Virus record (IMG/VR): IMGVR_UViG_3300025941_000657
Coordinates: 1 to 36,725 of that record
DNA from: a virus
Reading direction: 5' to 3' (one strand)
Length of the DNA stretch: 36,725 bases
Part shown: in pieces, positions 24,714 through 36,725 of the stretch
How positions within the stretch are numbered: position 1 is the stretch's first letter
Layout of the letters: every line of letters starts with the position of its first letter
Translations under genes and position numbers: made by a program
The notes under the pieces: model-generated
What the model was told of the DNA's origin: nothing
The model's database searches: none
What the model saw: only the letters and a program-made list of their open reading frames with translations

Positions 24714-24739
24714 GGCCCCCGTTCGCGGGGGCCTTTTTT
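24714..24739 (+). terminator. strong rho-independent terminator of the late operon
   Basis: An 8-bp G+C stem (GGCCCCCG with CGGGGGCC) closes a TTCG tetraloop and is followed by six T. It lies about 60 bases after the endolysin stop. Confidence 0.92.
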
Positions 24740-24801: not shown

Positions 24802-25002
24802 GTGCCAATTATGACGCTGTCGACTGACGTGGAACGGCGCTGCTCCGACGAGGAATACCTCGAAGCTGCCTACTGGAGCATGAAAGCCTGCCTGATCGTG
24901 CTCGCGCAGGCGAACCAAAAACCGCATCCGGCGCTGGCTATCGAGTGCAGCGCGCGCTTAGCATACTGGCAGCAGCGGGCGATTGCGTTCGCGTCGCGGT
25001 GA
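24802..25002 (+). CDS. small hypothetical protein
   Basis: This frame encodes 66 residues from GTG at 24802, or 63 from the in-frame ATG at 24811; the GGGGTAGGG just upstream can serve either start. The product is mostly helical (YLEAAYWSMKACLIVLAQAN) and ends SARLAYWQQRAIAFASR. No domain is recognised. It lies beyond the late terminator and is convergent with the minus-strand operon, so it needs its own promoter, which is not obvious. Confidence 0.5.
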   Translation: MPIMTLSTDVERRCSDEEYLEAAYWSMKACLIVLAQANQKPHPALAIECSARLAYWQQRAIAFASR

Positions 25003-25039
25003 TCTAGAAAAGCTGATGAATCCCTTCGCTGGGGTGAAG

Positions 25040-25303
25040 TTACTGTCGCTCGATCACGTTCATAATGATCTGCATAGCACCGTCATCGCCGTGGAATGGA
25101 CCGCCGGCTAAATCACCATCATCAGGCATGCCTCCATCTGGCGTCCACGGCTGGATCTCATACACGCCGCGCTTCATGTAGATGCTAAAGTTCCCGTCTA
25201 GCAGCGTAGCCGTCCAACCGTTAGGAAACGATGTCTCAGCCCAACGCCCAAGGTCAGGCCTCTCTGGGTGGGGTTGCCAGTTTAGATCATAGAATAGCGG
25301 CAT
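25040..25303 (-). CDS. small hypothetical protein, last gene of minus operon
   Basis: This 87-aa protein starts with ATG after GTGAGGAACG, part of the start-associated repeat. It begins with an aromatic stretch (MPLFYDLNWQPHPERPDLG), then AETSFPNGWTATLLDGNFSIYMK, and has an acidic Gly/Asp-rich middle (GGMPDDGDLAGGPFHGDDG). It looks soluble and beta-rich. No family is recognised. The stop overlaps an orphan repeat copy. Confidence 0.7.
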   Translation of the reverse strand: MPLFYDLNWQPHPERPDLGRWAETSFPNGWTATLLDGNFSIYMKRGVYEIQPWTPDGGMPDDGDLAGGPFHGDDGAMQIIMNVIERQ

Positions 25304-25322
25304 ATACGTTCCTCACCGGGGT

Positions 25323-25535
25323 TCAGTAGCTCATCTCTATTATGACCGATTTGGCCGCCCTGTCGCTGCGGAATTCTTCGTAAGCTCCGCCGCCCATTGA
25401 CCTCTTCTCATACCAATCCCACCAGATCCATATCTTATCCCCATTCTCATTTTCCCCAGCCAACGCGGGAAGGTAGGCGAACCTGCGTTTCCACTCGGAC
25501 CAGTCACCATTCCGCCGCTGCGTAAATGCCGGCAT
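25323..25535 (-). CDS. small hypothetical protein
   Basis: This 70-aa protein is preceded by a repeat copy and a GGGGAT ribosome site. The sequence is Trp-rich (DWSEWKRRFAYLPALAGENE, KIWIWWDWYEKR) and ends AAKSVIIEMSY. Aromatic small proteins of this kind are common in phage early regions; the function is not known. Its stop (TGA) runs into the next repeat copy. Confidence 0.7.
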   Translation of the reverse strand: MPAFTQRRNGDWSEWKRRFAYLPALAGENENGDKIWIWWDWYEKRSMGGGAYEEFRSDRAAKSVIIEMSY

Positions 25536-25559
25536 CCGTTTTATCCCCAGGGGTGAAGT

Positions 25560-25742
25560 TCATTCTGATCGTTGCGGAATACCCCACCTTAGCAAAGCGG
25601 GATCCTGCTCAGCCCCGCCACAGGTTGGGCAGCTATAATAGCAGTTCAATTCCCTCTGCTCGGCTGGGCTCATATCAATGCCAGATATCTGCTGGTATAG
25701 CGTTCCACATTCTCTGCACCTGCCAGGCATTCGGTAGGCCAT
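25560..25742 (-). CDS. small zinc-ribbon-like protein
   Basis: The ATG at 25742 is chosen because GGAGCGG lies seven bases upstream and because the previous gene stops at 25762; longer in-frame ATGs would overlap that gene. The 60-aa product has two Cys pairs, CREC near residue 8 and CPTC near residue 38, typical of a zinc ribbon. A conserved-looking ISGIDMSPAEQRELN lies between them. Zinc ribbons bind nucleic acid or protein partners; the partner is not evident. Confidence 0.65.
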   Translation of the reverse strand: MAYRMPGRCRECGTLYQQISGIDMSPAEQRELNCYYSCPTCGGAEQDPALLRWGIPQRSE

Positions 25743-25761
25743 TTTCCGCTCCGGAGTTAAG

Positions 25762-26016
25762 TTAATCCAATAGACCGGCCCGACGAAGCGCCGATATTCG
25801 CTGCTGAAGTGCCTCAAGCTCACTGGCTTGATAATGCCAATTAAGTTGGCGCTCATCACCCGCCACGGGTTTGTCTGGGTCCATTCCGAACTCGGCGCAA
25901 AGCTCCCGAGCGATAGGTTCGAGATGCTGGAACTTTGGTAACTGCTCTGACCATATGCGCCAGTAGTCGTCTTCCGCAGGACGACTCGATTCTGACTTTT
26001 CCTTCCACGGCCACAT
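25762..26016 (-). CDS. small hypothetical protein
   Basis: This 84-aa protein begins MWPWKEKSES and has a repeat copy with GAGGAA about twelve bases upstream. The middle (LEPIARELCAEFGMDPDKPVAGD) and the helical C-terminus (QASELEALQQRISALRRAGLLD) look like a small helical bundle. No family is recognised. It is separated from the zinc-ribbon gene by one repeat copy. Confidence 0.7.
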   Translation of the reverse strand: MWPWKEKSESSRPAEDDYWRIWSEQLPKFQHLEPIARELCAEFGMDPDKPVAGDERQLNWHYQASELEALQQRISALRRAGLLD

Positions 26017-26055
26017 CTGTGTGTGCGTTCCTCAATCGGGGTCTAGTATCAGGTC

Positions 26056-26184
26056 TTATGGTATTAGCTGCCAAAGCTGCCATGCACCGAACAATAGCAG
26101 GGCAAGAAGGCTGCTCGCGCAGATTGTGATGAGCGCGACCAGCAACTCTGGGACTTCGGAAAGTCTGTGTCTGTCTTCACTCAT
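26056..26184 (-). CDS. 42-aa single-pass membrane protein
   Basis: This small frame starts with ATG seven bases after the preceding stop, inside a repeat copy (CTAAACCCCAG-ATG), so translation is probably coupled. The product begins MSEDRHRLSEVPEL and carries one strongly hydrophobic segment (about 14-33: LLVALITICASSLLALLLFG), then a short WQLWQLIP tail. It fills the interval between two repeat copies, which supports it as a gene. The role is unknown. Confidence 0.6.
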   Translation of the reverse strand: MSEDRHRLSEVPELLVALITICASSLLALLLFGAWQLWQLIP

Positions 26185-26191
26185 CTGGGGT

Positions 26192-26488
26192 TTAGTTGAC
26201 CTTAGCGTTAGACTGATAAGTGTCATGTGATTGACACCCCAGAGGAATATTGGATGCCACCACCTTAGTCAGCCACTCTCTGTGAGCATCATCGTTAGCA
26301 ACTGATGCGATAAGCATTCCAGTCGCGCTTCCCACCATCATAAAAATATTGTTGTAGAAGCCCCACTGATCTGGAACATCCCAATCCCCGACGGCGCCAT
26401 CCACATAGTGCCTTCTGATAACTTCCGTCCACGCGCTTATGAGCGCGTGCCTTACTTCACGGTTCTTGGGTGTCAGCGGCTCATTCAT
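26192..26488 (-). CDS. small hypothetical protein
   Basis: This 98-aa protein starts with ATG after GGTGAGAG in a repeat copy. It begins MNEPLTPKNREVRHALIS with a helical head, then a mildly hydrophobic stretch (FYNNIFMMVGSATGMLIASVA, about 44-64) and a polar tail. It could be weakly membrane-associated. No family is recognised. Its stop is followed by the next repeat copy and the 42-aa gene. Confidence 0.7.
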   Translation of the reverse strand: MNEPLTPKNREVRHALISAWTEVIRRHYVDGAVGDWDVPDQWGFYNNIFMMVGSATGMLIASVANDDAHREWLTKVVASNIPLGCQSHDTYQSNAKVN

Positions 26489-26522
26489 GGCAATCTCTCA
26501 CCGGGGTTAAGTTTATTAGCAA

Positions 26523-26798
26523 TCACGAGCCACATCGATAGGCCACAAACCATAATGCAATGCCGAAGAAGGACAGAAAGATCGCAGCCACCGATAGACT
26601 GCATGCCCAGTCTGCCGAGGCATGTCCTCCAGTCATGAGGTAGCAAGTTACGTCAATCGCTAAGAACATCAAGCAGCCTAATATAACAGGACCCATAATA
26701 AGAATCATTAGTATGCAAAGGACGCAGATCTCCGGACTGCCTTCCCGTTTATACGCCGGCAGGCTATGCGGTGCCAGGTTTGCTCCGTAGTAAGGCAT
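26523..26798 (-). CDS. small two-helix membrane protein
   Basis: This 91-aa protein has two hydrophobic segments, about 25-50 (VLCILMILIMGPVILGCLMF) and 67-86 (LSVAAIFLSFFGIALWFVAY), joined by a short polar loop. Its ATG lies about eleven bases after a GAGGA ribosome site that is part of a repeat copy. The tRNA gene is just upstream on the same strand. Topology alone would fit a holin-like or exclusion protein, but nothing specific supports either. Confidence 0.65.
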   Translation of the reverse strand: MPYYGANLAPHSLPAYKREGSPEICVLCILMILIMGPVILGCLMFLAIDVTCYLMTGGHASADWACSLSVAAIFLSFFGIALWFVAYRCGS

Positions 26799-26833
26799 TT
26801 AGGCGCCATCCTCAATCGGGGTTGAGTTACAGT

Positions 26834-26919
26834 TGGTGGACAGGGCTGGATTCGAACCAGCGTGCCTCGTAGGGACCAGATTTACAGTCTGGCGGTTTCA
26901 GCCTCTCACCCACCTGTCC
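26834..26919 (-). tRNA. tRNA-Tyr (anticodon GTA), CCA encoded
   Basis: The minus strand folds as a class II tRNA: acceptor GGACAGG/CCTGTCC, anticodon stem CCAGA/TCTGG around CTGTAAA (GTA at 26883-26885), a long variable arm with a CCT/AGG stem, and T arm GCTGG-TTCGAAT-CCAGC. Discriminator A and CCA are encoded. It lies eight bases after an upstream gene's stop, so it is probably cut from the operon transcript. Confidence 0.93.
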
Positions 26920-26926
26920 TAACTCT

Positions 26927-27307
26927 CTATAGTGAAGCATCTTCAGGAGTCTGCCACCGACGTATTCCCGCAGCCGTCCCACGATTTGACGCAATCATGT
27001 ATCGGCCAATCGCAGCGCACACAATGTCGGCCATTCGCTGTTCGCCAATAACTAGCGTATCTGGGATCTTCGATAGTTTGTGCGGCAGAAAGGTCAGTCT
27101 GGCCAACACTTTGTCTTTTTGTCCAAAGGAGAGATTGCCTCCACTATGGCTCGCAACTCTGATTACTCCCTCACGTCCTGGGAATTGGTAGTAAACAGAC
27201 TCACTTTGCATTGAGACGTAGGCAACCTCAAAGCCTGCCATCTTCAGAAGACTTGCTGCCTCATCGCAGGCTTGCAGTGTCGTCAGGATGCGCCTTGGCT
27301 CTCTCAT
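26927..27307 (-). CDS. hypothetical protein of the minus operon
   Basis: This 126-aa soluble protein begins MREPRRILTTLQACDEAASL. An alpha/beta core follows (LKMAGFEVAYVSMQSESVYY, then VIRVASHSGGNLSFGQKDKV), and later LVIGEQRMADIVCAAIGRYM. Its ATG overlaps the stop of the preceding 48-aa frame (ATGA). It resembles no family I can name; the overall size and mix would suit a small regulatory or nuclease-inhibitor type protein, but that is not supported. Confidence 0.65.
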   Translation of the reverse strand: MREPRRILTTLQACDEAASLLKMAGFEVAYVSMQSESVYYQFPGREGVIRVASHSGGNLSFGQKDKVLARLTFLPHKLSKIPDTLVIGEQRMADIVCAAIGRYMIASNRGTAAGIRRWQTPEDASL

Positions 27308-27450
27308 TTAACCGGGGTGAGGTTTACTTCTATGCCCCATGGCCACATGCGTAACCCGATACTCTTGTTCCGCGCTCTTGCGAGCGTCGGGAGCGGCGCA
27401 TGCCACATTTCGCCGGTGTGGTTCCTAAGAACGACCATGAGGTTCGTCAT
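27304..27450 (-). CDS. 48-aa first frame of the minus operon
   Basis: This is the first frame after the minus-strand promoter at 27484-27512. It encodes 48 residues, MTNLMVVLRNHTGEMWH to IEVNLTPVK, and its stop overlaps the next start by four bases. A ribosome site is weak; AGGAAA lies about 20 bases before the ATG and a second ATG follows four codons later. It could be a leader peptide that couples translation into the next gene. Confidence 0.45.
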   Translation of the reverse strand: MTNLMVVLRNHTGEMWHAPLPTLARARNKSIGLRMWPWGIEVNLTPVK

Positions 27451-27468
27451 AATCCGGTGTCTGGTTTG

Positions 27469-27485
27469 TTTCCTGTTGACAGAAA
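27469..27485. promoter_or_regulatory. near-palindrome overlapping the plus promoter -35, possible operator
   Basis: TTTCcTGT-tg-ACAGAAA is a 7-bp inverted repeat with one bulged base. It covers the plus-strand -35 (27476-27481) and touches the minus-strand -10 (27484-27489). A bound regulator could act on both promoters at once. Confidence 0.45.
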
Positions 27486-27505
27486 CCTAGCCAATAAACT
27501 ACATT
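27476..27505 (+). promoter_or_regulatory. sigma70-type promoter for the recombinase and tagged-gene operon
   Basis: TTGACA (27476-27481), 18-base spacer, TACATT (27500-27505). It reads into the recombinase gene at 27541. Confidence 0.6.
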
Positions 27506-27512
27506 GCGTCAA
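27484..27512 (-). promoter_or_regulatory. sigma70-type promoter for the minus operon
   Basis: In minus sense TTGACG (27512-27507), 17-base spacer, TAGGTT (27489-27484). It reads into the 48-aa frame and the small-gene/tRNA operon and overlaps the plus promoter almost completely. Confidence 0.6.
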
Positions 27513-27540
27513 GAGGAAAGTTTAGGAGTCTGTAAATCAG

Positions 27541-28173
27541 GTGCCACGGAAGCCGAAAGCCAAGGATCAGCCGCCTCCCCGGCCGACCGAGGAGCCGCAC
27601 AAAATGGGTTATGCCCGCGTCTCCACGTCCGACCAGGATTTGCGGATGCAGCGGGACGCCCTGATTGCTGCCGGCGTCGATCCACGGGACATCTGGGAGG
27701 AGAAGGTCAGTGGCACCAGCTTGTCCAAGCGCAAGCAGTTCCACTTCATGATGAAGGACGTTCGCGAGGGCGATATCGTCTATGTGTGGAAGCTGGACCG
27801 GCTCGCACGCAATGCCGTGGACCTCTACCAGACGGCTAAGCTGATTGAGGACAGGGGCGCTACGCTGGTCGTCCTGACCATGCCTGGCATGGACACCGGA
27901 ACGCCCGTAGGCCGCGCCATGTTCGGCATGCTGGCCGTGTTCGCAGAGTTTGAGCGTGCCATTGCCCATGAGCGCACGATGGCCGGTCTGAGGGCGGCGC
28001 GGGAGCGGGGATGGAAGGGGCGTCAATCCAAGTTCAGCGATGACGAAGTGCTGGCTACCCAGCATCTCCCGAAGGCTGTGGCCGCGCGCCAAATAGGGAT
28101 CACGCCGGCGGGATACGGTAAGCGGTTAGCGAAAGCTTTAGAGAACCGTGCGAAAGGGAAATCTGATGAGTGA
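27541..28173 (+). CDS. serine recombinase (resolvase/invertase family)
   Basis: This 210-aa protein has the catalytic Ser28 in GYARVSTSDQD, the WKLDRLARN arginine motif (about 95-103), the E-helix region FAEFERAIAHERTMAGLRAA, and a C-terminal helix-turn-helix (about 175-200, LPKAVAARQIGITPAGYGKR). Length fits small resolvases and invertases. It uses GTG with AGGAG twelve bases upstream; the extra 20 Lys/Pro-rich N-terminal residues are unusual, and an ATG at 27604 would give a standard start. It could resolve multimers of a circular element or invert a segment; no paired recombination sites are visible here. It is first in the tagged-gene operon. Confidence 0.88.
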   Translation: MPRKPKAKDQPPPRPTEEPHKMGYARVSTSDQDLRMQRDALIAAGVDPRDIWEEKVSGTSLSKRKQFHFMMKDVREGDIVYVWKLDRLARNAVDLYQTAKLIEDRGATLVVLTMPGMDTGTPVGRAMFGMLAVFAEFERAIAHERTMAGLRAARERGWKGRQSKFSDDEVLATQHLPKAVAARQIGITPAGYGKRLAKALENRAKGKSDE

Positions 28174-28363
28174 GAAAGATACGACACTCTCATGCCCCCA
28201 CTGCGGTGGATGGCTGATTAGCCGCGCGGCTAGTGCTTACAGGGACGCTCATTGGCGCGCGTCCGTCCTGCGGGAAGCCCCCAAGGAGGTCTGGGAGGCT
28301 TACCGAGCTGACGGCATCGGCTTGATGGATGCCCTCTCGATGGAGCTGTCCTATGCCGGATGA
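28166..28363 (+). CDS. tagged small protein with CxxC motif
   Basis: The ATG at 28166 is chosen: GGGAA lies just upstream, and this start gives the tag MSEKDTT. It overlaps the recombinase stop by eight bases (28166-28173). The 65-aa product has a CPHCGG pair near residue 10 and a helical remainder (SAYRDAHWRASVLREAPKEV). A single Cys pair may be half of a zinc site completed in a dimer. The function is unknown. Confidence 0.65.
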   Translation: MSEKDTTLSCPHCGGWLISRAASAYRDAHWRASVLREAPKEVWEAYRADGIGLMDALSMELSYAG

Positions 28364-28514
28364 AGATCACCCAGACCGATCCCAGACGACCCAACACTGG
28401 ACCAGCCGTTATTACGCAACGGTTCTGTCTCTAGTGCTGTCCTGGGGCTTCGTGTGGGGCATTGTCATTGGGGCACATCTCGAAAAGATTACGGAATTTC
28501 TGAATGACCGATAA
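28353..28514 (+). CDS. tagged single-pass membrane protein
   Basis: The ATG at 28353 follows GGAG by eight bases and gives the long tag MPDEDHPDRSQTT. The 53-aa protein then has one hydrophobic segment (about 21-42, YYATVLSLVLSWGFVWGIVI) and a polar tail ending EFLNDR. The tag would lie on one side of the membrane. It contains the first copy of an exact 28-bp direct repeat. Confidence 0.65.
   Translation: MPDEDHPDRSQTTQHWTSRYYATVLSLVLSWGFVWGIVIGAHLEKITEFLNDR
28364..28391 (+). repeat. 28-bp exact direct repeat, copy 1
   Basis: Identical to 28735-28762; both encode the DHPDRSQTT part of the tag in the same reading frame, 371 bases apart. Perfect identity in otherwise unrelated genes suggests recent copying of the tag. 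Confidence 0.9.
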
Positions 28515-28698
28515 ATCAACCACAGCTTCAGTTGAGCTTGGTCGCGTGGCATTTAGAGAGTTCATGGAAGGTAATCCCAATCCCTTTCCGCTGGGGTCAT
28601 TGGATAGGATGTGGTGGTGGTCGGCTTTCATTCGTGAAGCAGAGCGCGTGCGCGATGATGCGATTAATCAGTGGTCTATTAAAGAGGCAATGAAATGA
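28504..28698 (+). CDS. tagged small protein
   Basis: This 64-aa protein starts MTDKSTTASVEL. Its first eleven bases (ATGACCGATAA) contain the stop codon of the preceding gene. The rest is helical (VAFREFMEGN, then WWWSAFIREAERVRDDAINQ) and has no known domain. The stop overlaps a possible 11-codon frame (28695-28730) leading into the next gene. Confidence 0.65.
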   Translation: MTDKSTTASVELGRVAFREFMEGNPNPFPLGSLDRMWWWSAFIREAERVRDDAINQWSIKEAMK

Positions 28699-28726
28699 GT
28701 TCGGCTGAACAGAGAGGGGGTGGACG

Positions 28727-29029
28727 ATGAGTGCAGATCACCCAGACCGATCCCAGACGACCACCGAGGAGCATGACCAGGACGCCAAGGTGCATGAGGA
28801 TTTGGGGCGGGCCAGCGTGACGCGGAGAAAGATCCGACCACGATCCGATACGACACTCATCAACCACGTGGCCGCTGCGCTTGCTAGGGAAGCTGGATGG
28901 GTAACGCCGTTGATGGAGATGGAAGCGGAATTTGTGCTCGGATATCAACGGCGAGCCCAAGCCGCGATTATCGCCATGAAGGACTGGGAACGCGAGCAAC
29001 GGTTGTTTGGAGATCACCCCCATGACTGA
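28727..29029 (+). CDS. tagged small protein
   Basis: This 100-aa protein starts MSADHPDRSQTT after a strong GAGGGGGTGG. It contains the second copy of the 28-bp repeat. The body is charged and helical (ASVTRRKIRPRSD, then HVAAALAREAGWVTPLMEME and RRAQAAIIAMKDWEREQRL). An 11-codon frame upstream (28695-28730, MSSAEQRGGGR) overlaps its start and may couple translation. No family is recognised. Confidence 0.68.
   Translation: MSADHPDRSQTTTEEHDQDAKVHEDLGRASVTRRKIRPRSDTTLINHVAAALAREAGWVTPLMEMEAEFVLGYQRRAQAAIIAMKDWEREQRLFGDHPHD
28735..28762 (+). repeat. 28-bp exact direct repeat, copy 2
   Basis: Identical to 28364-28391, in the same frame relative to the tag (DHPDRSQTT). Confidence 0.9.
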
Positions 29030-29231
29030 CAACACGACGATTCCGGAATTCCTTCGTCCCATAGCCCATGACGATGGCACCCTGGAGGGAACGCTGCCGG
29101 GAGATCGGGGCGGCTATGTCATCCTGCCGTGTGATAGCGGTCTGGTGCTGCTCGACGGAGTATGGACACCCTCGCAGCTCCGCGCGATTGCTGACTACGC
29201 AGAGAGCATTGGAGTTCATAATGCCCGATAA
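29022..29231 (+). CDS. tagged small protein
   Basis: The ATG at 29022 has TTTGGAG nine bases upstream and gives MTDNTTIPEFLRP; its first eight bases (ATGACTGA) contain the previous stop. The 69-aa product has LEGTLPGDRGGYVILPCDSG and ends in a helix (PSQLRAIADYAESIGVHNAR). It appears to be a compact alpha/beta protein with no recognised family. Confidence 0.65.
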   Translation: MTDNTTIPEFLRPIAHDDGTLEGTLPGDRGGYVILPCDSGLVLLDGVWTPSQLRAIADYAESIGVHNAR

Positions 29232-29454
29232 CTCATCGACCATAAGAGAGGCCGGGGAATGGCATGCCCGTCACGAGCCTATTAGCGCTCTACTTCCAGA
29301 CGACGGACAGCCCAGAGTGTTTGTGGAGAGCGACGACTTCGCGCACGATGTCAGGCTATATGTAAGTGGTGACTTTAAAGACGATGAACAGCGATTAGCA
29401 TACGCGAACGAAATTGCTCGGCGCCTGAACGCCTGGGAGTCTCAGAATGGCTGA
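29221..29454 (+). CDS. tagged small protein
   Basis: The ATG at 29221 has GGAG six bases upstream and gives MPDNSSTIREAGEWHAR; the first eleven bases (ATGCCCGATAA) contain the previous stop. The 77-aa protein has acidic loops (ALLPDDGQPRVFVESDDF) and the helical end AYANEIARRLNAWESQ. The function is unknown. Confidence 0.65.
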   Translation: MPDNSSTIREAGEWHARHEPISALLPDDGQPRVFVESDDFAHDVRLYVSGDFKDDEQRLAYANEIARRLNAWESQNG

Positions 29455-29686
29455 AAACCCCACCACCCACAAGGTCCGAGAGAATGACCCTATCTACCGC
29501 ATTCGCCAACGCGAATCGACGGTCCAGATCGGATGGGTGCAAGGCAGGTTTCGGCATATCGATGAATGGATGACACGACTTGGGCTACATTCCAGGTCTC
29601 CACAGTTTCTATCCGAGCCCATCAGCGACGAGTCCCGCCGCAAAATAGACAATAGGCTCGCTAGCGTTCCGAGAATCAAACTATGA
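29447..29686 (+). CDS. tagged small protein
   Basis: This 79-aa protein starts MAENPTTHKVREND after GGGAG, and its first eight bases (ATGGCTGA) contain the previous stop. The body is basic (YRIRQRESTVQIGWVQGRFR) and ends SRRKIDNRLASVPRIKL. It could bind nucleic acid by charge, but no motif shows it. Confidence 0.65.
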   Translation: MAENPTTHKVRENDPIYRIRQRESTVQIGWVQGRFRHIDEWMTRLGLHSRSPQFLSEPISDESRRKIDNRLASVPRIKL

Positions 29687-29886
29687 ACGATCAGCCGACG
29701 CAAAACCCAATGACCCAGAAGCCTGAATGCATCCACATCGAGCAGTGGGCGCTGGACGACAAGGGAAACATGGCCTGGGAGTTTCACGTCTGGGGAGCCG
29801 ACGACAAGGACCCGCTTGTCTGTGGAACAAGGCCAACACTAGTCCAAGCTATTGAAGCAACGTTGCAGTTCGTGAGATCACTATGA
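29683..29886 (+). CDS. tagged small protein
   Basis: This 67-aa protein starts MNDQPTQNPMTQKPE, a more diverged form of the tag, with ATGA overlap to the previous gene. The middle (CIHIEQWALDDKGNMAWEFH) and the end (RPTLVQAIEATLQFVRSL) suggest a small beta-beta-alpha fold. A clear ribosome site is missing, so it probably depends on coupling. Confidence 0.62.
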   Translation: MNDQPTQNPMTQKPECIHIEQWALDDKGNMAWEFHVWGADDKDPLVCGTRPTLVQAIEATLQFVRSL

Positions 29887-30230
29887 ACAACAGACCTGAT
29901 CGATCCGAGACGACCCGCGAAGATCTCATTGGCACGGGCATTATCCAGTGCTGTCCTGAATGTGGCCAGCCACTAGAGGGGGTGGCCATCAACATTCACG
30001 GTTCACTTCCCTACATTCGCCACATCAATGTGTCTGGGAATATCAGGGGGGCGATTCGCAGATCGGCGGGAAACAGCGAGAAGTTGGCGGTCGAGCTGAC
30101 CAACATGATCGTCGGCCAGGAATTCCCTGTCGAGGAGATCGGCGACATCCTCGAATGTATCAGCATTTATCAGCCGACACCGATCCCTACCGAGGTCGTA
30201 GAGGCAATAAGGGTCCGTTTGAATGTCTGA
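29883..30230 (+). CDS. tagged small protein with CPxC-type pair
   Basis: This 115-aa protein starts MNNRPDRSETTRED, the long tag form, with ATGA overlap. It has CCPECGQPLEG near residue 23, as in half zinc ribbons. A hydrophilic alpha/beta body follows (KLAVELTNMIVGQEFPVEEI, then PTPIPTEVVEAIRVRLNV). The family is not recognised. Confidence 0.65.
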   Translation: MNNRPDRSETTREDLIGTGIIQCCPECGQPLEGVAINIHGSLPYIRHINVSGNIRGAIRRSAGNSEKLAVELTNMIVGQEFPVEEIGDILECISIYQPTPIPTEVVEAIRVRLNV

Positions 30231-30405
30231 CAAGCGAAACTCATCGACCGGACACATGGATGAGCGGGAGAACCATATTCGCCGGCTCGCTATGATCATG
30301 ACCAAAGCGGCAATACCGTCTCATGACTGCGAGGAATATCTGCGAAACCGGGAATACGGGCTAGCCCTGGCCGCTCTGGCAGAGGATGTAATTCATGGCC
30401 GATAA
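30223..30405 (+). CDS. tagged small protein
   Basis: This 60-aa protein starts MSDKRNSSTGHMDERE; ATGTCTGA contains the previous stop. The rest is a helical domain (HIRRLAMIMTKAAIPSHDCE, then YGLALAALAEDVIHGR). The function is unknown. Confidence 0.62.
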   Translation: MSDKRNSSTGHMDERENHIRRLAMIMTKAAIPSHDCEEYLRNREYGLALAALAEDVIHGR

Positions 30406-30592
30406 TTCCCAGACCACCGCTAACTGGCCGGTTTGCGAGAGTTGCGAACACCCCGGAGTTTGCCGCCAAGAGGATGAGTGCCTGATCGACCATCATTCCC
30501 TCTATCGGATGGAACTACATCGCCAGCGTGAGATAGCCATGAAGGTCATTGAGCGCGATGCCCCATTGTTCAGGAGACTTGCAAAACGATGA
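30395..30592 (+). CDS. tagged Cys-rich small protein
   Basis: This 65-aa protein starts MADNSQTTANWPV; ATGGCCGATAA contains the previous stop. Cys residues occur as CESCEHPGVCRQEDEC (four Cys in 16 residues, about 14-29), which could hold one zinc or a disulphide pair. The C-terminal half is a basic helix (HRQREIAMKVIERDAPLFRR). Confidence 0.65.
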   Translation: MADNSQTTANWPVCESCEHPGVCRQEDECLIDHHSLYRMELHRQREIAMKVIERDAPLFRRLAKR

Positions 30593-30783
30593 GCCTAAAC
30601 CCCACCACCGTCGAGCCAACCCTGGTCGAGCGCGTTGCGCGCGCACTATGGGAGACGGATTGCGCGCGCTGGGGCGACGCCGCGTGCGGGGATATGCCGC
30701 AGTGGGATACCGACGGGACGGCTTACATCGCTATGGCTGAGGAAGCCATTGCAGTCGTTAGACAATGGGACGCGGGGAAATGA
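30589..30783 (+). CDS. tagged small protein
   Basis: This 64-aa protein starts MSLNPTTVEPTLVERVARAL with an ATGA overlap. The middle (TDCARWGDAACGDMPQWDTD) and the helical end (GTAYIAMAEEAIAVVRQWDA) recall small phage proteins that start with a VERVARAL-type helix and end in a similar helix. The function is unknown. Confidence 0.65.
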   Translation: MSLNPTTVEPTLVERVARALWETDCARWGDAACGDMPQWDTDGTAYIAMAEEAIAVVRQWDAGK

Positions 30784-30941
30784 GCGATCAGAACTCAACC
30801 ACCCATCCCAGCCTTCTGTTCGAGGAAGCGTGTTTGCTGGATCGAGATATCGACGCCTGGCATGAACAGGTCGACAAGGAGGAGCCACTGGCGGCCTACC
30901 TCGTGCGCATTGGCTGGCGAAAGGCAAACCAGAATGGCTAA
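30780..30941 (+). CDS. tagged small protein
   Basis: This 53-aa protein starts MSDQNSTTHPSLLFEEA with an ATGA overlap and ends RIGWRKANQNG. It is acidic in the middle (LLDRDIDAWHEQVDKEEPL) and helical. Its stop lies inside the start tag of the next gene, which supports both. Confidence 0.62.
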   Translation: MSDQNSTTHPSLLFEEACLLDRDIDAWHEQVDKEEPLAAYLVRIGWRKANQNG

Positions 30942-31173
30942 CTCCGATACCACGGCCGATGATCTGACACACGACAAGGCGGTCGCCGGCGTATTGTTAG
31001 ACTCCTTGATCCACATCCTGCCCTATGGGCTCCCTGCTGCTACGCTGCTGGACGTGCTTGTTCAGCAGCACGTCTCCAAAGGGATTGCAGCGTCTCTGAT
31101 CAGGGAGGGATTGGGCAACGGCTCGCTGGTGCTGACCGACAGCATGAACATTGCAGGAGAGCATTCGTGGTAG
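30934..31173 (+). CDS. tagged small protein
   Basis: The ATG at 30934 gives MANSDTTADDLTHDK; ATGGCTAA contains the previous stop. The 79-aa protein has a winged-helix-like helical pattern (LPYGLPAATLLDVLVQQHVS, then KGIAASLIREGLGNGSLVLT). This may be a small DNA-binding fold, but no family match can be claimed. Confidence 0.65.
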   Translation: MANSDTTADDLTHDKAVAGVLLDSLIHILPYGLPAATLLDVLVQQHVSKGIAASLIREGLGNGSLVLTDSMNIAGEHSW

Positions 31174-31358
31174 ATCAGCCCAATCAATCCGAGACGACCG
31201 AACCAAACGCCGTTGCCTTGTGGCGGAGTATGGGACGGCTCGCCCGCATCACAGGCGAACCATGCGAACCGCCGTCAGTCCTGTCCCACCTGAATGACGC
31301 CTGGACCGACGGCTGGAGGCAGGAAGATGCGAAACGGGAAAATCAGCATGACCGATAA
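31167..31358 (+). CDS. tagged small protein
   Basis: This 63-aa protein uses GTG after AGGAG and starts MVDQPNQSETTEPNA; the previous TAG lies inside GTGGTAG. It is helical (VALWRSMGRLARITGEPCEP) and ends in a charged, Gln-rich tail (WRQEDAKRENQHDR). The function is unknown. Confidence 0.62.
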   Translation: MVDQPNQSETTEPNAVALWRSMGRLARITGEPCEPPSVLSHLNDAWTDGWRQEDAKRENQHDR

Positions 31359-31557
31359 ACCCGCCGCCATCCCGGAACTGTCCCAAGTTCGGTTGCTGCG
31401 CCAAGTGGGACCTATTGCCGAAGGGAACGTCGGAACCGTTGTTCACGTCTATCCTCGTGGCGATGCCTACGAAGTAGAGTTCCGCACCGGACCAGAAGAT
31501 TACGACTGGCACCTTGAGACATGTCCGCCGGATGCCGTGGAGGCTTTGAATGTCTGA
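31348..31557 (+). CDS. tagged DUF4926-like small protein
   Basis: The ATG at 31348 gives MTDKPAAIPELSQVR; ATGACCGATAA contains the previous stop. The 69-aa body (VRLLRQVGPIAEGNVGTVVH, then YEVEFRTGPEDYDWHLET) resembles the DUF4926 family, small beta-barrel proteins with a GxVGTVV turn and YEVEF strand. These are usually of unknown function and some neighbour toxin-antitoxin genes. Confidence 0.65.
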   Translation: MTDKPAAIPELSQVRLLRQVGPIAEGNVGTVVHVYPRGDAYEVEFRTGPEDYDWHLETCPPDAVEALNV

Positions 31558-31669
31558 CGAGCGAAACTCCACCACCACCGGGATGGTGGTGTGGCGAGAG
31601 ATAAAATTGTCCGCAAGGCAATTCTTTGCCCCCGTCATCTGGGTATGGAAGATCTGCCATGGCAGATAA
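31550..31669 (+). CDS. tagged 39-aa protein
   Basis: This short frame starts MSDERNSTTTGMVVWRE; ATGTCTGA contains the previous stop, and its own stop lies in the next gene's ATGGCAGATAA. The rest (KLSARQFFAPVIWVWKICHG) is weakly hydrophobic. An inverted repeat around CCACCACC/GGTGGTG lies early in the coding part. Confidence 0.55.
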   Translation: MSDERNSTTTGMVVWREIKLSARQFFAPVIWVWKICHGR

Positions 31670-31910
31670 CCCAACCACCAGCGAGGACATTATAGAGCGC
31701 CTGCTCTACGTCGCGGAATGGGGCAGCACTGATCCGTGCAAGTTGTGCATCGATGCGGCGAACGAAATCGAACGGCTGCGCGCGACGCTACGCGAAATCC
31801 GCCGCGACATCGAGGAGTCCGCCGATGACGTTGTGTGGATGCGTGGCGGCATTGAGACCGTCTGCGATAGGATCACCGCAGCGCTTGGAGATCAGCATGT
31901 CCCCGAATGA
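31659..31910 (+). CDS. tagged small helical protein
   Basis: The ATG at 31659 gives MADNPTTSEDIIERLLYVAE. The 83-aa protein contains DPCKLCIDAANEIERLRATL, a motif common in short phage proteins in which a coiled coil begins with AANEIERLR. It probably oligomerises through that helix. The function is unknown. Confidence 0.68.
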   Translation: MADNPTTSEDIIERLLYVAEWGSTDPCKLCIDAANEIERLRATLREIRRDIEESADDVVWMRGGIETVCDRITAALGDQHVPE

Positions 31911-32079
31911 TACGACCCGGGACATGGACGCCTTCGACGAAGGGTATGACGCATTCGCGGATAACCACTTAGACTACGACGCATGTCCTTACCCTATCGG
32001 GACAGCCAAACGTAAAGAGTGGCTAAGGGGATGGGACTGCGCTTTGGACGATGCGGCGACTAGCACGTGGGAAGATTAA
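31897..32079 (+). CDS. tagged RMF-like protein
   Basis: The ATG at 31897 gives MSPNDTTRDMDAFDEGYDAF and overlaps the previous gene by 14 bases. The 60-aa body matches the ribosome modulation factor pattern: A-x-x-x-G-Y-x-A, then A-C-P-Y-P, and K-E-W-L-R-G-W-D-x-A (residues about 12-50). RMF dimerises 70S ribosomes in stationary phase. A phage version could bind host ribosomes, or the fold may be reused. Confidence 0.72.
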   Translation: MSPNDTTRDMDAFDEGYDAFADNHLDYDACPYPIGTAKRKEWLRGWDCALDDAATSTWED

Positions 32080-32080
32080 C

Positions 32081-32275
32081 ATGACTGATTCCCAGACCGC
32101 CGCAGTCTCAACGACAGACGACGACGGTGGATCTATCGAGCCTAGACCGGCAAGGTGGCTCACTGCGCCTGAAGTTCATTCCTTGGTTTGGTTCTCGATA
32201 GGGGCCGCGATGTCCTCTGTGGTGTGGATAGGCGTGGGCGCGCGTATCGCGATGGATCACCTATGTGGCCGCTGA
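32081..32275 (+). CDS. tagged single-pass membrane protein
   Basis: The ATG at 32081 gives MTDSQTAAVSTTDDDG, one base after the previous stop. The 64-aa protein has a hydrophobic segment (about 35-57, SLVWFSIGAAMSSVVWIGVG) and a short polar end. Topology alone is visible. Confidence 0.62.
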   Translation: MTDSQTAAVSTTDDDGGSIEPRPARWLTAPEVHSLVWFSIGAAMSSVVWIGVGARIAMDHLCGR

Positions 32276-32294
32276 CAGAGCATGGGGAATCCGC

Positions 32295-32339
32295 ATGACT
32301 GATTCCCAGACCACCACTTGCGAGTGTCCTGCGGGATGA
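32295..32339 (+). pseudogene. orphan tag, 14 codons
   Basis: This frame encodes only MTDSQTTTCECPAG before TGA. Its first 18 bases are identical to the start of the preceding gene. It is either a tag copied without cargo, or the remains of a gene cut at the junction with the opposing secretion operon. Confidence 0.5.
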
Positions 32340-32702: not shown

Positions 32703-32862
32703 GCTGCACTACCAGCGGAAGCTGCTGCTGCGGTGATCGGGTCGGCTCCTGTTGGCGGATCAGCGCCTGCGTCGGCTGAGCTAGCTGCATAGCCAAGTGG
32801 CCTTTATGCAGCAAATTCGCAATCCACTGCTCAGTTCGGCGGTCCTGCTCTTCAGACGGCAT
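32686..32862 (-). CDS. 58-aa hydrophilic protein between virD4-like and membrane protein genes
   Basis: The ATG at 32862 overlaps the VirD4-like stop by eleven bases (ATGCCGTCTGA), and its stop lies inside the next gene. The product is Gln-rich (TEQWIANLLHKGHLAMQLAQ, then SPQQQLPLVVQRGQSR) and helical. Placement in a tightly packed operon supports it as real. The function is unknown. Confidence 0.55.
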   Translation of the reverse strand: MPSEEQDRRTEQWIANLLHKGHLAMQLAQPTQALIRQQEPTRSPQQQLPLVVQRGQSR

Positions 32863-34717
32863 CGATATCCTCCATTTCTCGGTAGAACCGCGACGGCATT
32901 ACGCGGTCGATCAGTTCGGCGCGCTCCCAAGGCCTGACACGGTAGAGTTCCTTCAGCGGCTTCTCCAGGCCCAGGATCAGCTGCTGCCTGGGGTGTAGGT
33001 CGGCCAGCAGTTGATACGGGTCGATCAGGTTCTTGCTGATCTCGTGGGTGCCGACATTCTCGCCGCGCGAGATGCGTCCGCCGAAGCCGGTCCCGGCGGC
33101 AACGGAGCGGTTGAAACTGTCGTTCCGCGCCATCACGCCATGTCGGCCGCTGCTGTCGGAAATCTCCCGCGCCACGAGATGGTCGCGGATCTCGGTGTAG
33201 GACCGCCACGTGGCGCACTCAAACCAGGAGCGGCGTCCAGTGACGTCCCAAACTTCCTCCATGTCGGCCACGCTCAGCCAGTTCATGTGCATTGAGACGC
33301 GATAGCCGCGGCCATATTGCCGCAGATGGTCCAACGCCGTCATCCGGCCGAACAGCTTTGATTCGTCGATCTCGAAATGCACCCGCCCCTGCGGGACGTC
33401 ACCGTCGGCGACGATCATGGCGTTGAGGAAACAGGCCATCAGCACCTTGACCACGGGAGGCATGGTGGTCACCGCGTCGAGCGGCACTTGGATAAATACC
33501 GCCAGCTTCTTGCTGACAATGTCGGTCGAGCGAATGGTATCGCCCGAGACCAGGGCGGCAAACGCCGGAATGGTCAGCCACGAGGTTTTCTGCGCCGCTT
33601 CCTTGAAAATCCCCGGCCACATTTCCTTTGCCTGCTCGGTGCCGACGATTTCCCCCGCCAAGTCGCGTGCCATGTGTGAGCGGGAACTAGCCTTGATCCC
33701 ATGTAGCGCAACGATGACTGCGTCGGGCCCCTGGGAAAGGATCCGGCGAACGGTGGCCAGAGTCTTCGGTGGCGGCAGGACCACCGCGCCGGTTTGCTCA
33801 TTGACCTCGGGTATGGACCACAGCACGTGGGCCAGCAGGCAGGCGACGAGGTCTCGCCCGGATAAATGGAAGAAGTCCCCGGTGTTGGTTTTGATTTGCT
33901 TTTCCGATGGATCAAACATCCAATTGACCGCAGTGTGGACGTGCATCTCGGCAAGCGGATGCTTTGGGTCGATCCAATCGACCACGTTGACCGATCCCGA
34001 ACATGACGCCCAGGGATAGATCCGGCCCGTGCTGTCGCTTGGCCTAGGGTTGGGATTGAGCATGACAACACGGTAGCCCTCCCTTTCTTTGGCCTCGTAA
34101 AGCATCGGGCCAAGCTCGGCCTTGGGGTCGGTGACGACCATTGGCCCGAGCCAGTAGGCACATCGGGCGGCGGCCATCGAGGTCTTGCCACCGCCAGAGG
34201 TGGCGAATTCTAGCGACAGCCCATTGCGCAGTTCGCAAGTATCGAACAGCAGCTCGCCTTTGGCGGTCTGGCCAACCAGCTTGCCGCCATAGCTATATTT
34301 CGGGCCGTTGAAGATTTGCTTGGCCCGGTCGACTGTCATCCATTCGGCATGGCCGTGGTTGTCTGTCATGGCCCGCTCTGAGGCAATCGGGGGCCTAGCG
34401 AAAGAGCGGCGGATCCGTCGCATCGGGATACGCCTGATCCTAAAGTGGATAAGACACACGATAGCGATGATTGACGCCGGCGGTGCAAATACTGAGGCGA
34501 GAACCAAACCCCGCACCGGAACCGGCGCGCCGAACACGCGAATAACATGCTCCGGATAATCCCGATAATAGTCCAACAGCATGGTCGCATACCAATTATC
34601 TTCGCCGCCGCTGCCGGTTAGCAATACGAAAATATATGTCGCAGAGGCATACCATACGACTAACACGACGCAGACAATCAGCAGAGACATCCAAACCGTG
34701 CGGTCAATTCTACGCAT
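32852..34717 (-). CDS. virD4: VirD4/TraG-type coupling protein
   Basis: This 621-aa hexameric ATPase family protein would bring substrate (DNA-relaxase complex or effector) to the T4SS channel. It has two N-terminal membrane segments (about 8-33 and 71-92), then the cytoplasmic ATPase. Walker A reads ATSGGGKTS (172-180) and TDPKAEL (196-202) matches the VirD4 DPKGE motif. The Walker B region reads VHFEIDESKLFGR (447-459) instead of the usual LLDEF; the acidic pair is kept as D451-E452. It starts one base after the AT-hook-like gene. Phage terminases are not similar, so it belongs to conjugation or secretion. Confidence 0.88.
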   Translation of the reverse strand: MRRIDRTVWMSLLIVCVVLVVWYASATYIFVLLTGSGGEDNWYATMLLDYYRDYPEHVIRVFGAPVPVRGLVLASVFAPPASIIAIVCLIHFRIRRIPMRRIRRSFARPPIASERAMTDNHGHAEWMTVDRAKQIFNGPKYSYGGKLVGQTAKGELLFDTCELRNGLSLEFATSGGGKTSMAAARCAYWLGPMVVTDPKAELGPMLYEAKEREGYRVVMLNPNPRPSDSTGRIYPWASCSGSVNVVDWIDPKHPLAEMHVHTAVNWMFDPSEKQIKTNTGDFFHLSGRDLVACLLAHVLWSIPEVNEQTGAVVLPPPKTLATVRRILSQGPDAVIVALHGIKASSRSHMARDLAGEIVGTEQAKEMWPGIFKEAAQKTSWLTIPAFAALVSGDTIRSTDIVSKKLAVFIQVPLDAVTTMPPVVKVLMACFLNAMIVADGDVPQGRVHFEIDESKLFGRMTALDHLRQYGRGYRVSMHMNWLSVADMEEVWDVTGRRSWFECATWRSYTEIRDHLVAREISDSSGRHGVMARNDSFNRSVAAGTGFGGRISRGENVGTHEISKNLIDPYQLLADLHPRQQLILGLEKPLKELYRVRPWERAELIDRVMPSRFYREMEDIDAV

Positions 34718-34962: not shown

Positions 34963-35958
34963 TCAAGCGAGGTCTGCATCCTTGAACCATACTTCGTCCA
35001 CGTGTCGCTCTCCGCCCTCATCCAGCGTGAGATGTATCACCACGTCGATGAAAGCCTTCAGCTGCTCAGTGACATCCTCCGGCCGCACGCCTCTACCTTC
35101 TGGAGTTTGGCTTATCAGCACACGCAGGCGATGAAATACTCCCGCGCAATCGCTGGCATGGATCGTAGTGATTGCCCCTGTGTGGCCAGTCTGAAGTGCG
35201 ATCATGAGGGCATTGGCAGTATTTCCATCGCGGATCTCTTGTATGAAGAGACGGCCGATACGCATTCTGAGAGCCGCATCGACGAGCTGTGTGGCCGTGA
35301 TGTCTCCCTCCCTTGGATCCTTTTTACAGAACAGCGCGACCGAGTTCTGGTGCGGCAGATCTAGCAATTCCTGCGCGTCCTCAATGACGATCAGCCGGTC
35401 CTCTAGAGGGATCTCGCCAATGAGGGCTTTGCTGAGCGTGGTCTTCCCGGACGCAGTCTGACCACATGCTATGATTGTGCGGCGGCGCCTTACCGCGAGC
35501 GCGAGGAACTCGTCGAAGCGCTCGTCGCGGTATAGCTGCAATAGGTCCTCATCTCGATTGATCTGTCGCTTGGCGACGGCTCTTTTGAAGAGGCCCTTGG
35601 AGGCCAACTCCTTCATGGTCGGCCAGTCGCTGCTGCCGCGACGGATGACGAGGCATGGCCGACCCTGAGGAACACACGGATAGAATACGGCCTGCAGTCG
35701 CCTGGCTGCCTCCCCCGCGCTGTTCATGGCAATCGACAATAATGGTCTGTCGTGATGGATGTTCTGCCGCAGCTGTGCCGCCGCAACAATGGCAATGTCC
35801 TCGATGTCGTCCGCGTCGAGCCGCACATCGTGTCGCTTGTATGCACCACGCTCGAACGTCCATATGTTGTCGGGGGCGTTGACTAATACATCTTCGACAG
35901 AGGGGTTTCCCAGCCAATGACCGAGCGGGTCGAGGAGGTGGTCTAGGGTTACGCTCAT
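34963..35958 (-). CDS. virB11: VirB11-type secretion ATPase
   Basis: The ATG at 35958 has AGGAG six bases upstream and overlaps the VirB10 stop (TAATG); longer upstream starts lie inside virB10. The 331-aa hexameric ATPase shows Walker A GQTASGKT (166-173), an Asp box IEDAQEL (192-198), a Walker B region RMRIGRLFIQEIR (231-243), and a His box GHTGAITTIHA (258-268). Family members usually have GE in place of QE in the Walker B region and T in IEDTQEL. It powers pilus assembly and substrate transfer at the inner membrane. Confidence 0.9.
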   Translation of the reverse strand: MSVTLDHLLDPLGHWLGNPSVEDVLVNAPDNIWTFERGAYKRHDVRLDADDIEDIAIVAAAQLRQNIHHDRPLLSIAMNSAGEAARRLQAVFYPCVPQGRPCLVIRRGSSDWPTMKELASKGLFKRAVAKRQINRDEDLLQLYRDERFDEFLALAVRRRRTIIACGQTASGKTTLSKALIGEIPLEDRLIVIEDAQELLDLPHQNSVALFCKKDPREGDITATQLVDAALRMRIGRLFIQEIRDGNTANALMIALQTGHTGAITTIHASDCAGVFHRLRVLISQTPEGRGVRPEDVTEQLKAFIDVVIHLTLDEGGERHVDEVWFKDADLA

Positions 35959-36725
35959 TACTGGCTCCTGTATTTCTGGACCAAGGTGTAGGCTCCCCTC
36001 ATGTCCAAATCGCGGACTACGAAGATCGAACACGGAAGTCCTTCGTCCCGCGTCATGACATCCGGTATCTGAATATACGAGCGAAGCAGCTCGTCAGCGG
36101 CACCCTGGCCTCCTTGTTGGAAGCTGTTGAAATTCAGATTGGTCTGACTGTTTCCGTTACCCTGCTGACGGCCAAGATATTGTGTCGCCATGTCGATGCC
36201 ACCGCGGAACAGCGATAAGCCGAAAATGCCGCCCAGCTTTCCGGGAAATGGATTGAACAGATGCCTGTTCACATCGCCATCAACTCCCGTTTCGCCACGC
36301 TCGCTGGCAGCAGGAGAATTGACCGCGACACGAAACTGATGCGGCATCCCACGCGCATCATAGAGCACCGGTGTTGTGATATCCTGCCAAAGCACCGCAG
36401 CGCGATCTAAACCGTTTAGCAGCCCGTGCTGGATTGTGCCGAACACTTTGGCGCCCTTCGGCAGCAAGACGACGTCGCCGGTCTCGCCGCGTATCTCTTC
36501 GGGTATGATGGCGGTGACCGCCCCCGGAAGCGTGGTATTTATGCGCGTCTGCTGGATACAGCGCAGAATGCGACCTTCCTCGATGAGCCATCTAGGGTTG
36601 GGCAGTTCAGCTACGCGCGTGCCGTTCATTTTGGTCGGCTGTAGCGATGCCTCTAGGGCATCAGGGCGTCCACTGGGCGGTATTGCGTCTTGGTCACCCT
36701 CGCCGCCCGGCTTTCCTGCGGCCGC
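35958..36725 (-). CDS. virB10: VirB10-type T4SS scaffold protein (5' partial)
   Basis: The frame is open to the right edge, so the N-terminal cytosolic and membrane segments and part of the Pro-rich linker are outside; about 255 codons remain. The visible C-terminal domain has GAVTAIIPEEIRGETGDVVL, LLPKGAKVFGTIQHGLLNG and AAVLWQDITTPVL. The end, PCSIFVVRDLDMRGAY, matches the family's I-x-V-F-V-x-R-D-L-D. VirB10 spans inner and outer membranes and gates the channel. A Gln/Asn-rich insert (about residues 190-205 from the edge, YLGRQQGNGNSQTNLNFN) lies where the antenna loop is expected. Confidence 0.88.
   Translation of the reverse strand, partial: AAAGKPGGEGDQDAIPPSGRPDALEASLQPTKMNGTRVAELPNPRWLIEEGRILRCIQQTRINTTLPGAVTAIIPEEIRGETGDVVLLPKGAKVFGTIQHGLLNGLDRAAVLWQDITTPVLYDARGMPHQFRVAVNSPAASERGETGVDGDVNRHLFNPFPGKLGGIFGLSLFRGGIDMATQYLGRQQGNGNSQTNLNFNSFQQGGQGAADELLRSYIQIPDVMTRDEGLPCSIFVVRDLDMRGAYTLVQKYRSQ

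What the first reader, a model, noticed from the sequence alone, without database searches (positions are those of the whole stretch)
25031..27325. A second, different start-associated repeat in the minus operon
ACTNNACCCC, usually run into CCCCGGTGAGG or CCCCGATTGAGG, precedes nearly every minus-strand gene (nine copies in 2.3 kb). It resembles in concept the start-associated sequences described in some mycobacteriophages, but the sequence is different. The plus array has no such element, so the two divergent operons each have a private start signature.
Basis: partly seen in the sequence, partly recalled or inferred. Interest (0 to 1): 0.78.

Follow-up and report, generated by a model that had tools for sequence, protein, structure and literature searches.

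The report
Repeated linker before phage accessory genes
A short repeated DNA sequence sits between the small genes of one operon in a soil phage, recurs in four related viral records beside largely different genes, and probably helps each gene start being translated while also marking where genes are swapped between phages.

Summary
The repeat is real. Nine copies (consensus AACTTnACCCCGG) lie between 25029 and 27324, all on the minus strand. A matrix built only from a relative's copies finds one upstream of 8 of 8 minus-array genes, 0 of 17 plus-array, 0 of 15 structural and 0 of 4 T4SS-side starts, and in 1% of random stretches. The operon's tRNA-Tyr has none in front, and one copy follows the last gene with no gene after it. 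Further IMG/VR arrays carry it (G003, G689, G690, G691; G692 is near-identical to G691): in the last three, 15 of 25 array genes against 0 of 72 other ORFs. Window and G003 arrays share no genes, but G691's array holds genes of both, and shared DNA blocks mostly end at the element. It holds or follows the upstream stop codon, lies just before a floating Shine-Dalgarno, and shows no RNA structure or second promoter-like block. Best reading: a start-associated translation linker, similar in kind to motifs of mycobacteriophage cluster K and Microbacterium clusters EC/EF, that also serves as a cassette boundary. Complementarity to 16S rRNA 1484-1495 is only weakly significant (about 0.03).

The parts
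27312..27324 (-). element e1, AACCTCACCCCGG, before g1 (ATG 27307)
26816..26828 (-). element e2, after tRNA-Tyr, before g2
26501..26513 (-). element e3, before g3
26185..26197 (-). element e4; contains the TAA stop of g3; before g4
26036..26048 (-). element e5, before g5; homology with the G691 array begins inside it
25751..25763 (-). element e6, AACTTAACTCCGG, before g6
25548..25560 (-). element e7, before g7; homology with the G691 array ends inside it
25316..25328 (-). element e8; contains the TGA stop of g7; before g8
25029..25041 (-). element e9, directly after the stop of g8; no start codon or gene follows on this strand
27454..27466 (-). weak candidate element (AACCAGACACCGG) before leader ORF g0; the matching place in G690 has a better copy
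   Evidence: score 10.5; G690 copy
27304..27450 (-). leader ORF g0 (48 aa), overlaps the g1 start as ATGA; its DNA is matched in G690
26927..27307 (-). g1, 126 aa, no family match
26834..26919 (-). tRNA-Tyr (GTA), no element in front
   Evidence: ARAGORN, Rfam
26523..26798 (-). g2, 91 aa
26192..26488 (-). g3, 98 aa
26056..26184 (-). g4, 42 aa
25762..26016 (-). g5, 84 aa; 96% identical copy and a 65% paralogue in the G691 array
25560..25742 (-). g6, 60 aa; 87% identical copy in the G691 array
25323..25535 (-). g7, 70 aa
25040..25303 (-). g8, 87 aa, last gene of the array
27466..27525 (.). divergent promoter-like region, TTTCCTNTTGAC in inverted repeat, between recombinase and minus array
   Evidence: plus promoter-like hit at 27476-27505; the minus hexamers were read by eye and were not reported by the scan

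Best explanation
The element is a start-associated translation linker of a polycistronic accessory-gene operon. Each copy sits between two genes: its 5' part holds or follows the upstream stop codon, its C-rich core (ACYnnACYCCrG) is fixed, and a Shine-Dalgarno of free sequence follows a few nt later, with the start codon usually 21-32 nt from the element's first base. Shown: position, orientation, restriction to this operon, lack of RNA structure, conservation across unrelated genes in several arrays, and shared DNA blocks that mostly end at the element. Inferred: that it acts in the mRNA at initiation or re-initiation (through a phage or host factor, or the ribosome itself), so that any small gene placed between two linkers is terminated and started properly; and that, because all linkers share the core, they are the points at which such genes are exchanged between related phages.
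For: G003-only matrix: 8 of 8 array starts, 0 of 36 other starts tested, 1.0% of random 45-mers; tRNA not preceded. New arrays: 15 of 25 genes, 0 of 72 control ORFs. Information confined to columns -2..+12, no second block, Shine-Dalgarno floating. Mean folding z +0.2 over 16 elements. Of 12 elements with a noted upstream stop, it ends -10..+5 nt from the element start in 11; the exception is -56. Window and G003 arrays have no homologous genes and no alignable DNA, while tail-gene DNA is 70.6% identical. G691 carries window genes g5, g6 and two G003 genes. Comparable motifs are in print.
Against: e9 has no gene after it. e1 and e4 have no evident Shine-Dalgarno. Ten of 25 genes in the new arrays lack a scored element, and two genes that follow one in G003 lack it in G691, so it is not essential to a gene. 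No binding factor was found. All functional steps are inferred from sequence; no expression data exist.
Confidence: 0.5

Rival explanations
1. The element is first of all a recombination linker: a short shared word at cassette ends at which accessory genes are exchanged by homology or by a site-specific enzyme; its place near starts follows from marking gene ends.
For: Elements bound the array at both ends, including after the last gene (e9). Shared blocks between arrays end in an element in both sequences at 4 of 10 block ends, and within about 15 nt of one in at least one sequence at 7 of 10 (hand-read). Gene pools mix: G691 has genes of both the window and G003. A serine recombinase lies beside the window array and a truncated homologue beside G690's.
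Against: Block ends at gene ends are usual in phages (established knowledge), and the conserved core itself stretches alignments. Core to Shine-Dalgarno spacing is tighter than a pure boundary marker needs. No recombinase homologue was seen in the G691 or G689 stretches, nor among the neighbouring ORFs scanned; the element is neither folded nor attC-like.
Confidence: 0.27
2. The element acts as DNA: a promoter part or a regulator's binding site upstream of each gene.
For: Repeated asymmetric intergenic motifs in phages can be promoters or operators; cluster K extended sequences were later read as putative promoters (PMC11373665, passages).
Against: Core is G+C rich with no second conserved block at promoter spacing; promoter scan at chance level; stop codons lie inside the element and spacing is tied to the start codon; tRNA not preceded.
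Confidence: 0.12
3. The element pairs with 16S rRNA: ACTTCACCCC is the exact complement of rrsH 1486-1495 (decoding-site strand of h44), extended to 1484 by R-G, and holds terminating or initiating ribosomes.
For: Single match of GGGGTNNAGT in E. coli 16S; the 10-mer is kept in 6 of 8 alphaproteobacterial 16S loci recovered. Shuffled 16S contains ACTNNACCCC in 215 of 4000 and ACTNNACCCCRG in 25 of 4000. Over all 31 elements, 44 of 1500 shuffles reach the observed pairing.
Against: The two NN positions pair in only 15 and 14 of 31 elements, and the conserved first A does not pair. Most non-TC elements pair no better than shuffled copies. The site is base-paired in h44; the comparable downstream-box pairing was disproved by experiment (PMC4611024, passage), and free oligomers against this strand inhibit translation (PMC5774723, passages).
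Confidence: 0.05
4. It is only the usual ribosome binding site of this phage lineage, alike by common descent.
For: A Shine-Dalgarno follows most copies.
Against: The conserved block lies upstream of the Shine-Dalgarno, which itself varies; 0 of 36 other starts in the same record have it.
Confidence: 0.06

Closest known systems
Start-Associated Sequences (SAS/ESAS) of cluster K mycobacteriophages (PMC3203893)
   Same: Short asymmetric repeats, nearly all in one orientation, at starts of non-structural genes of different families; upstream stop codon can lie inside; function unknown.
   Different: Consensus GGGATAGGAGCCC includes the Shine-Dalgarno and lies within a few nt of the start; about half have 17-bp inverted repeats. 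Here the core lies upstream of the Shine-Dalgarno, no inverted repeat is conserved, and all array copies sit in one operon.
18-bp motif of Microbacterium cluster EC phages (PMC7302621, section 12)
   Same: 12 asymmetric copies in small intergenic regions, one orientation, 21-30 bp upstream of starts and upstream of the ribosome binding site.
   Different: Unrelated sequence (TAGaCTATaGGTgTaAgC); those phages encode a sigma factor; no exchange boundaries were mentioned in the section read.
SAS-like motif of Microbacterium cluster EF phages (GGGAAAGGACCCC, PMC7302621)
   Same: Start-associated repeat with an ACCCC run.
   Different: ACCCC follows the Shine-Dalgarno there and precedes it here.
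Integron attC cassette arrays (recalled, no paper read)
   Same: Many small unknown genes in one direction, separated by a repeated sequence, with gene content that differs between relatives.
   Different: No folded attC-type site and no tyrosine integrase found; the neighbouring enzyme in the window is a small serine recombinase.

Membership tests
Cluster K SAS | 13-bp consensus GGGATAGGAGCCC within two mismatches | tested here: not met
   0 matches in the window
Cluster K SAS | repeats at starts of non-structural genes, oriented with transcription | tested here: met
   8 of 8 array genes, 0 of 15 structural
Cluster K SAS | motif contains the Shine-Dalgarno, a few nt from the start | tested here: not met
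   conserved block ends before the Shine-Dalgarno; mostly 21-32 nt from the start
Cluster K ESAS | 17-bp imperfect inverted repeats just upstream of the motif | tested here: not met
   no sequence information upstream of column -3
Cluster EC motif | sequence TAGaCTATaGGTgTaAgC | tested here: not met
   0 matches with up to 2 mismatches
Cluster EC-like start-associated intergenic motif (kind, not sequence) | asymmetric, one orientation, about 20-30 bp upstream of starts, upstream of the ribosome binding site | tested here: met
   e1 and e4 are closer (17 and 13 nt)
Cluster EF SAS | GGGAAAGGACCCC at starts | tested here: not met
   2 matches with 2 mismatches, 0.9 expected, neither in the array
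Integron cassette array | tyrosine integron integrase beside the array | tested here: not met
   neighbour is a serine recombinase, phrog_125/phrog_95
Integron cassette array | attC sites with inverted repeats that fold | tested here: not met
   no structure, mean z +0.2
Bacterial promoter | two hexamers at fixed spacing | tested here: not met
   no second conserved block; promoter scan at chance level

The most novel reading that the evidence does not exclude
A plug-in gene cassette system in a group of soil phages, some perhaps phage-plasmids, of Acetobacteraceae-like hosts: a non-palindromic linker of about 13 bp carries stop-codon context and a translation-start signal, so small accessory genes are swapped at the linker core and expressed at once wherever they land, without integron-type sites.
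Probability: 0.25. Interest if true: 0.75.

Novelty: new member of a known kind. Interest (0 to 1): 0.52.

Why it matters
Start-associated repeats were seen here outside the actinobacterial phages in which the papers read describe them, and their function is still called unknown in those papers (PMC3203893, PMC11373665, PMC12699233). This lineage gives a simpler test case: one operon, one motif, one tRNA without it, orthologous genes with and without it in relatives, and gene blocks that break at it. It links a possible translation signal to the way phages trade accessory genes.

Tried and rejected
RNA hairpin that hides the Shine-Dalgarno: rejected, folding no better than shuffles. Known RNA family: only the tRNA is above its gathering score; a cobalamin riboswitch hit below it overlaps the tRNA. 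Promoter: scan at chance. 16S pairing: kept as a low-probability rival. Built-in stop codons in several frames: elements close 1.4 frames on average against 0.65 in other 19-mers of the strand, but 10 of 16 close no more than one, so not argued further. Element in cellular relatives: the tail protein found nothing in genome contigs; it matched 28 of 299 genomes of one family and 19 of 385 of the class; 19 stretches from 16 of those genomes held no array. Genome pattern scan: 42 stretches, no array. Viral pattern scans: one search gave 1 hit, taken as chance; two searches gave only G003 as a true array; one search gave the new arrays, first seen, which scanned all 295 loci then held. Host: nearest VirD4 relatives are mostly in Acetobacteraceae plasmids (31-37% in the first 15 rows); this and searches are the only hints.

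Limits: the loci were found through at least one element each, so 15 of 25 is biased upward; its start codons were picked by me, one (G690, 949) is not at a start codon, and the G691 g5 gene is scored as a miss although a copy with one extra base is visible; control ORFs are all frames of 100 aa or more, not curated genes. In one search about four of the 17 plus-array starts were off frame by a few bases. The weak G003 copy h3 was put in register by hand. Eight paper searches were answered and seven papers opened, all in part; I did not search papers for the motif's letters.
Full report
WHAT WAS CHECKED. The window is one IMG/VR virus record of 36,725 bases. ACTNNACCCC occurs 8 times, 0.63 expected, 0 of 100 shuffles as many; 7 copies lie in 25031-26827 on the minus strand and one lies antisense in a plus gene at 17483. 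The looser ACYNNACYCC gives 13 (2.87 expected), with nine in the array. I name them e1 to e9.

ANATOMY. The plus strand to 24651 carries siphovirus morphogenesis genes. A small plus gene at 24802-25002 follows; its homologue in G003 is 84% identical and in L022 79%. The minus array runs 27307-25040 with eight small genes (126, 91, 98, 42, 84, 60, 70 and 87 aa), with no Pfam match over its cut-off and no PHROG match, plus tRNA-Tyr 26919-26834. A serine recombinase points away at 27541-28173. In the window the element begins 13-32 nt before the start codon (21-32 in 6 of 8). In window and G003 together, 11 of 12 noted upstream stops end -10 to +5 nt from the element's first base; in four the stop lies inside it (e4, e8 and two in G003).

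SPECIFICITY. A matrix built only from G003's seven copies scores 9 or more upstream of 8 of 8 minus-array starts, 0 of 17 plus-array, 0 of 15 structural and 0 of 4 T4SS-side starts, and 1.0% of random 45-mers; upstream of the tRNA it scores -1.1. Information is confined to columns -2 to +12; the Shine-Dalgarno is weak and floating and there is no second block. Folding is no better than in shuffles (mean z +0.2, 16 elements).

RELATIVES. The tail-protein search found the record G003 (124 kb; 72% identical tail protein), whose array at the same place has seven copies: four strong, two weak, and one (h3) that I put in register by hand. An insertion of about 3.7 kb with an 8-base target duplication interrupts that array (IS1595-like is my reading of the transposase, not a database call). 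Array proteins of window and G003 have no convincing match to each other; the only alignable DNA across the array region is the small flanking gene, while the tail genes are 70.6% identical. The last viral scan, screened for clusters, gave G689, G690 and the near-identical pair G691/G692. In the three arrays 15 of 25 genes have an element, against 0 of 72 ORFs outside them. G691 also has a tail gene 59% identical, in the same arrangement. Distant cellular relatives had no array: 19 stretches of 16 genomes examined.

GENE EXCHANGE. G691's array holds window g5 (96% aa) and g6 (87%), and G003's 114-aa gene (92%) and a Gly/Tyr/Pro-rich gene (86% over 65 aa). BLASTN gave 8 alignments between arrays; I set aside the flanking gene, a g5 paralogue and a 30-base piece. 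The other five have ten ends. By my reading, four ends lie in an element in both sequences (both ends of the g5-g6 block; the 3' end of the 114-aa gene block; the 3' end of the g0 block with G690), three more lie within about 15 nt of one in at least one sequence, and three have none. At the resolved ends the stop side goes with the upstream gene and the Shine-Dalgarno side with the downstream gene. This fits exchange at the linker, but block ends at gene ends are common and the conserved core lengthens alignments, so it is not proof.

16S RRNA. ACTTCACCCC is the complement of E. coli rrsH 1486-1495; of 8 alphaproteobacterial loci recovered from 7 of 41 genomes, 6 keep GGGGTGAAGT and two have GGGGTTAAGT. 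Set-level chance is 44 of 1500 for 31 elements and 71 of 2000 for the first 16. The NN positions do not keep pairing, and the site is paired within h44 (PMC5774723). I hold it at 5%.

LITERATURE. Passages of PMC3203893, PMC4351075, PMC11373665, PMC12699233, PMC5774723 and PMC4611024, and section 12 plus passages of PMC7302621 were read. The papers on these motifs describe them in actinobacterial phages and say their function is unknown. My searches listed no proteobacterial example that I recognised; most subscription papers are not in that library.

VERDICT. A real, operon-specific, start-associated linker shared by a lineage of soil viruses; most likely a translation signal that also serves as cassette boundary (0.5), with a mainly recombinational role next (0.27). 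It is a new member of a known kind.

Noticed in passing
window 32852-34717 (-) and 34963-36033 (-): VirD4/TraG-type coupling protein (PF02534) and VirB11-type ATPase (PF00437) in the same record as siphovirus genes: possibly a conjugative phage-plasmid, or a chimeric contig. PF02534 is absent from the 5 relatives searched.
   Followed up: partly
window 28166-32300 (+): Most plus-array proteins begin with a shared N-terminal pattern like M-S/T/A-D/E-x(1-7)-T-T (MADNPTTS, MSDQNSTT, MADNSQTT), a separate start-associated signature at coding level.
   Followed up: no
window 26834-26919 (-): tRNA-Tyr gene inside the minus array between g1 and g2; nearest phage DNA matches are tRNA-Tyr genes of Stenotrophomonas and Pseudomonas phages.
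   Followed up: partly
L010 22164-18439: Insertion of about 3.7 kb with ends GGTATTATGTAGCAACG and target duplication AAAATAGC, carrying a transposase-like gene and passengers, inside an array gene of G003.
   Followed up: partly
L305 6999-7702 (-): Recombinase homologue in G690 cut to its C-terminal part, with a T5orf172-domain gene in place of the rest.
   Followed up: no
L304 5777-6463 and 6603-7283 (-): Tandem paralogues (228 and 226 aa) in the G689 array, each with its own element: arrays may also grow by duplication.
   Followed up: no
window 24714-24733 (+): Strong terminator-like hairpin (8 G-C pairs, then TTTTTT) at the end of the structural operon.
   Followed up: no
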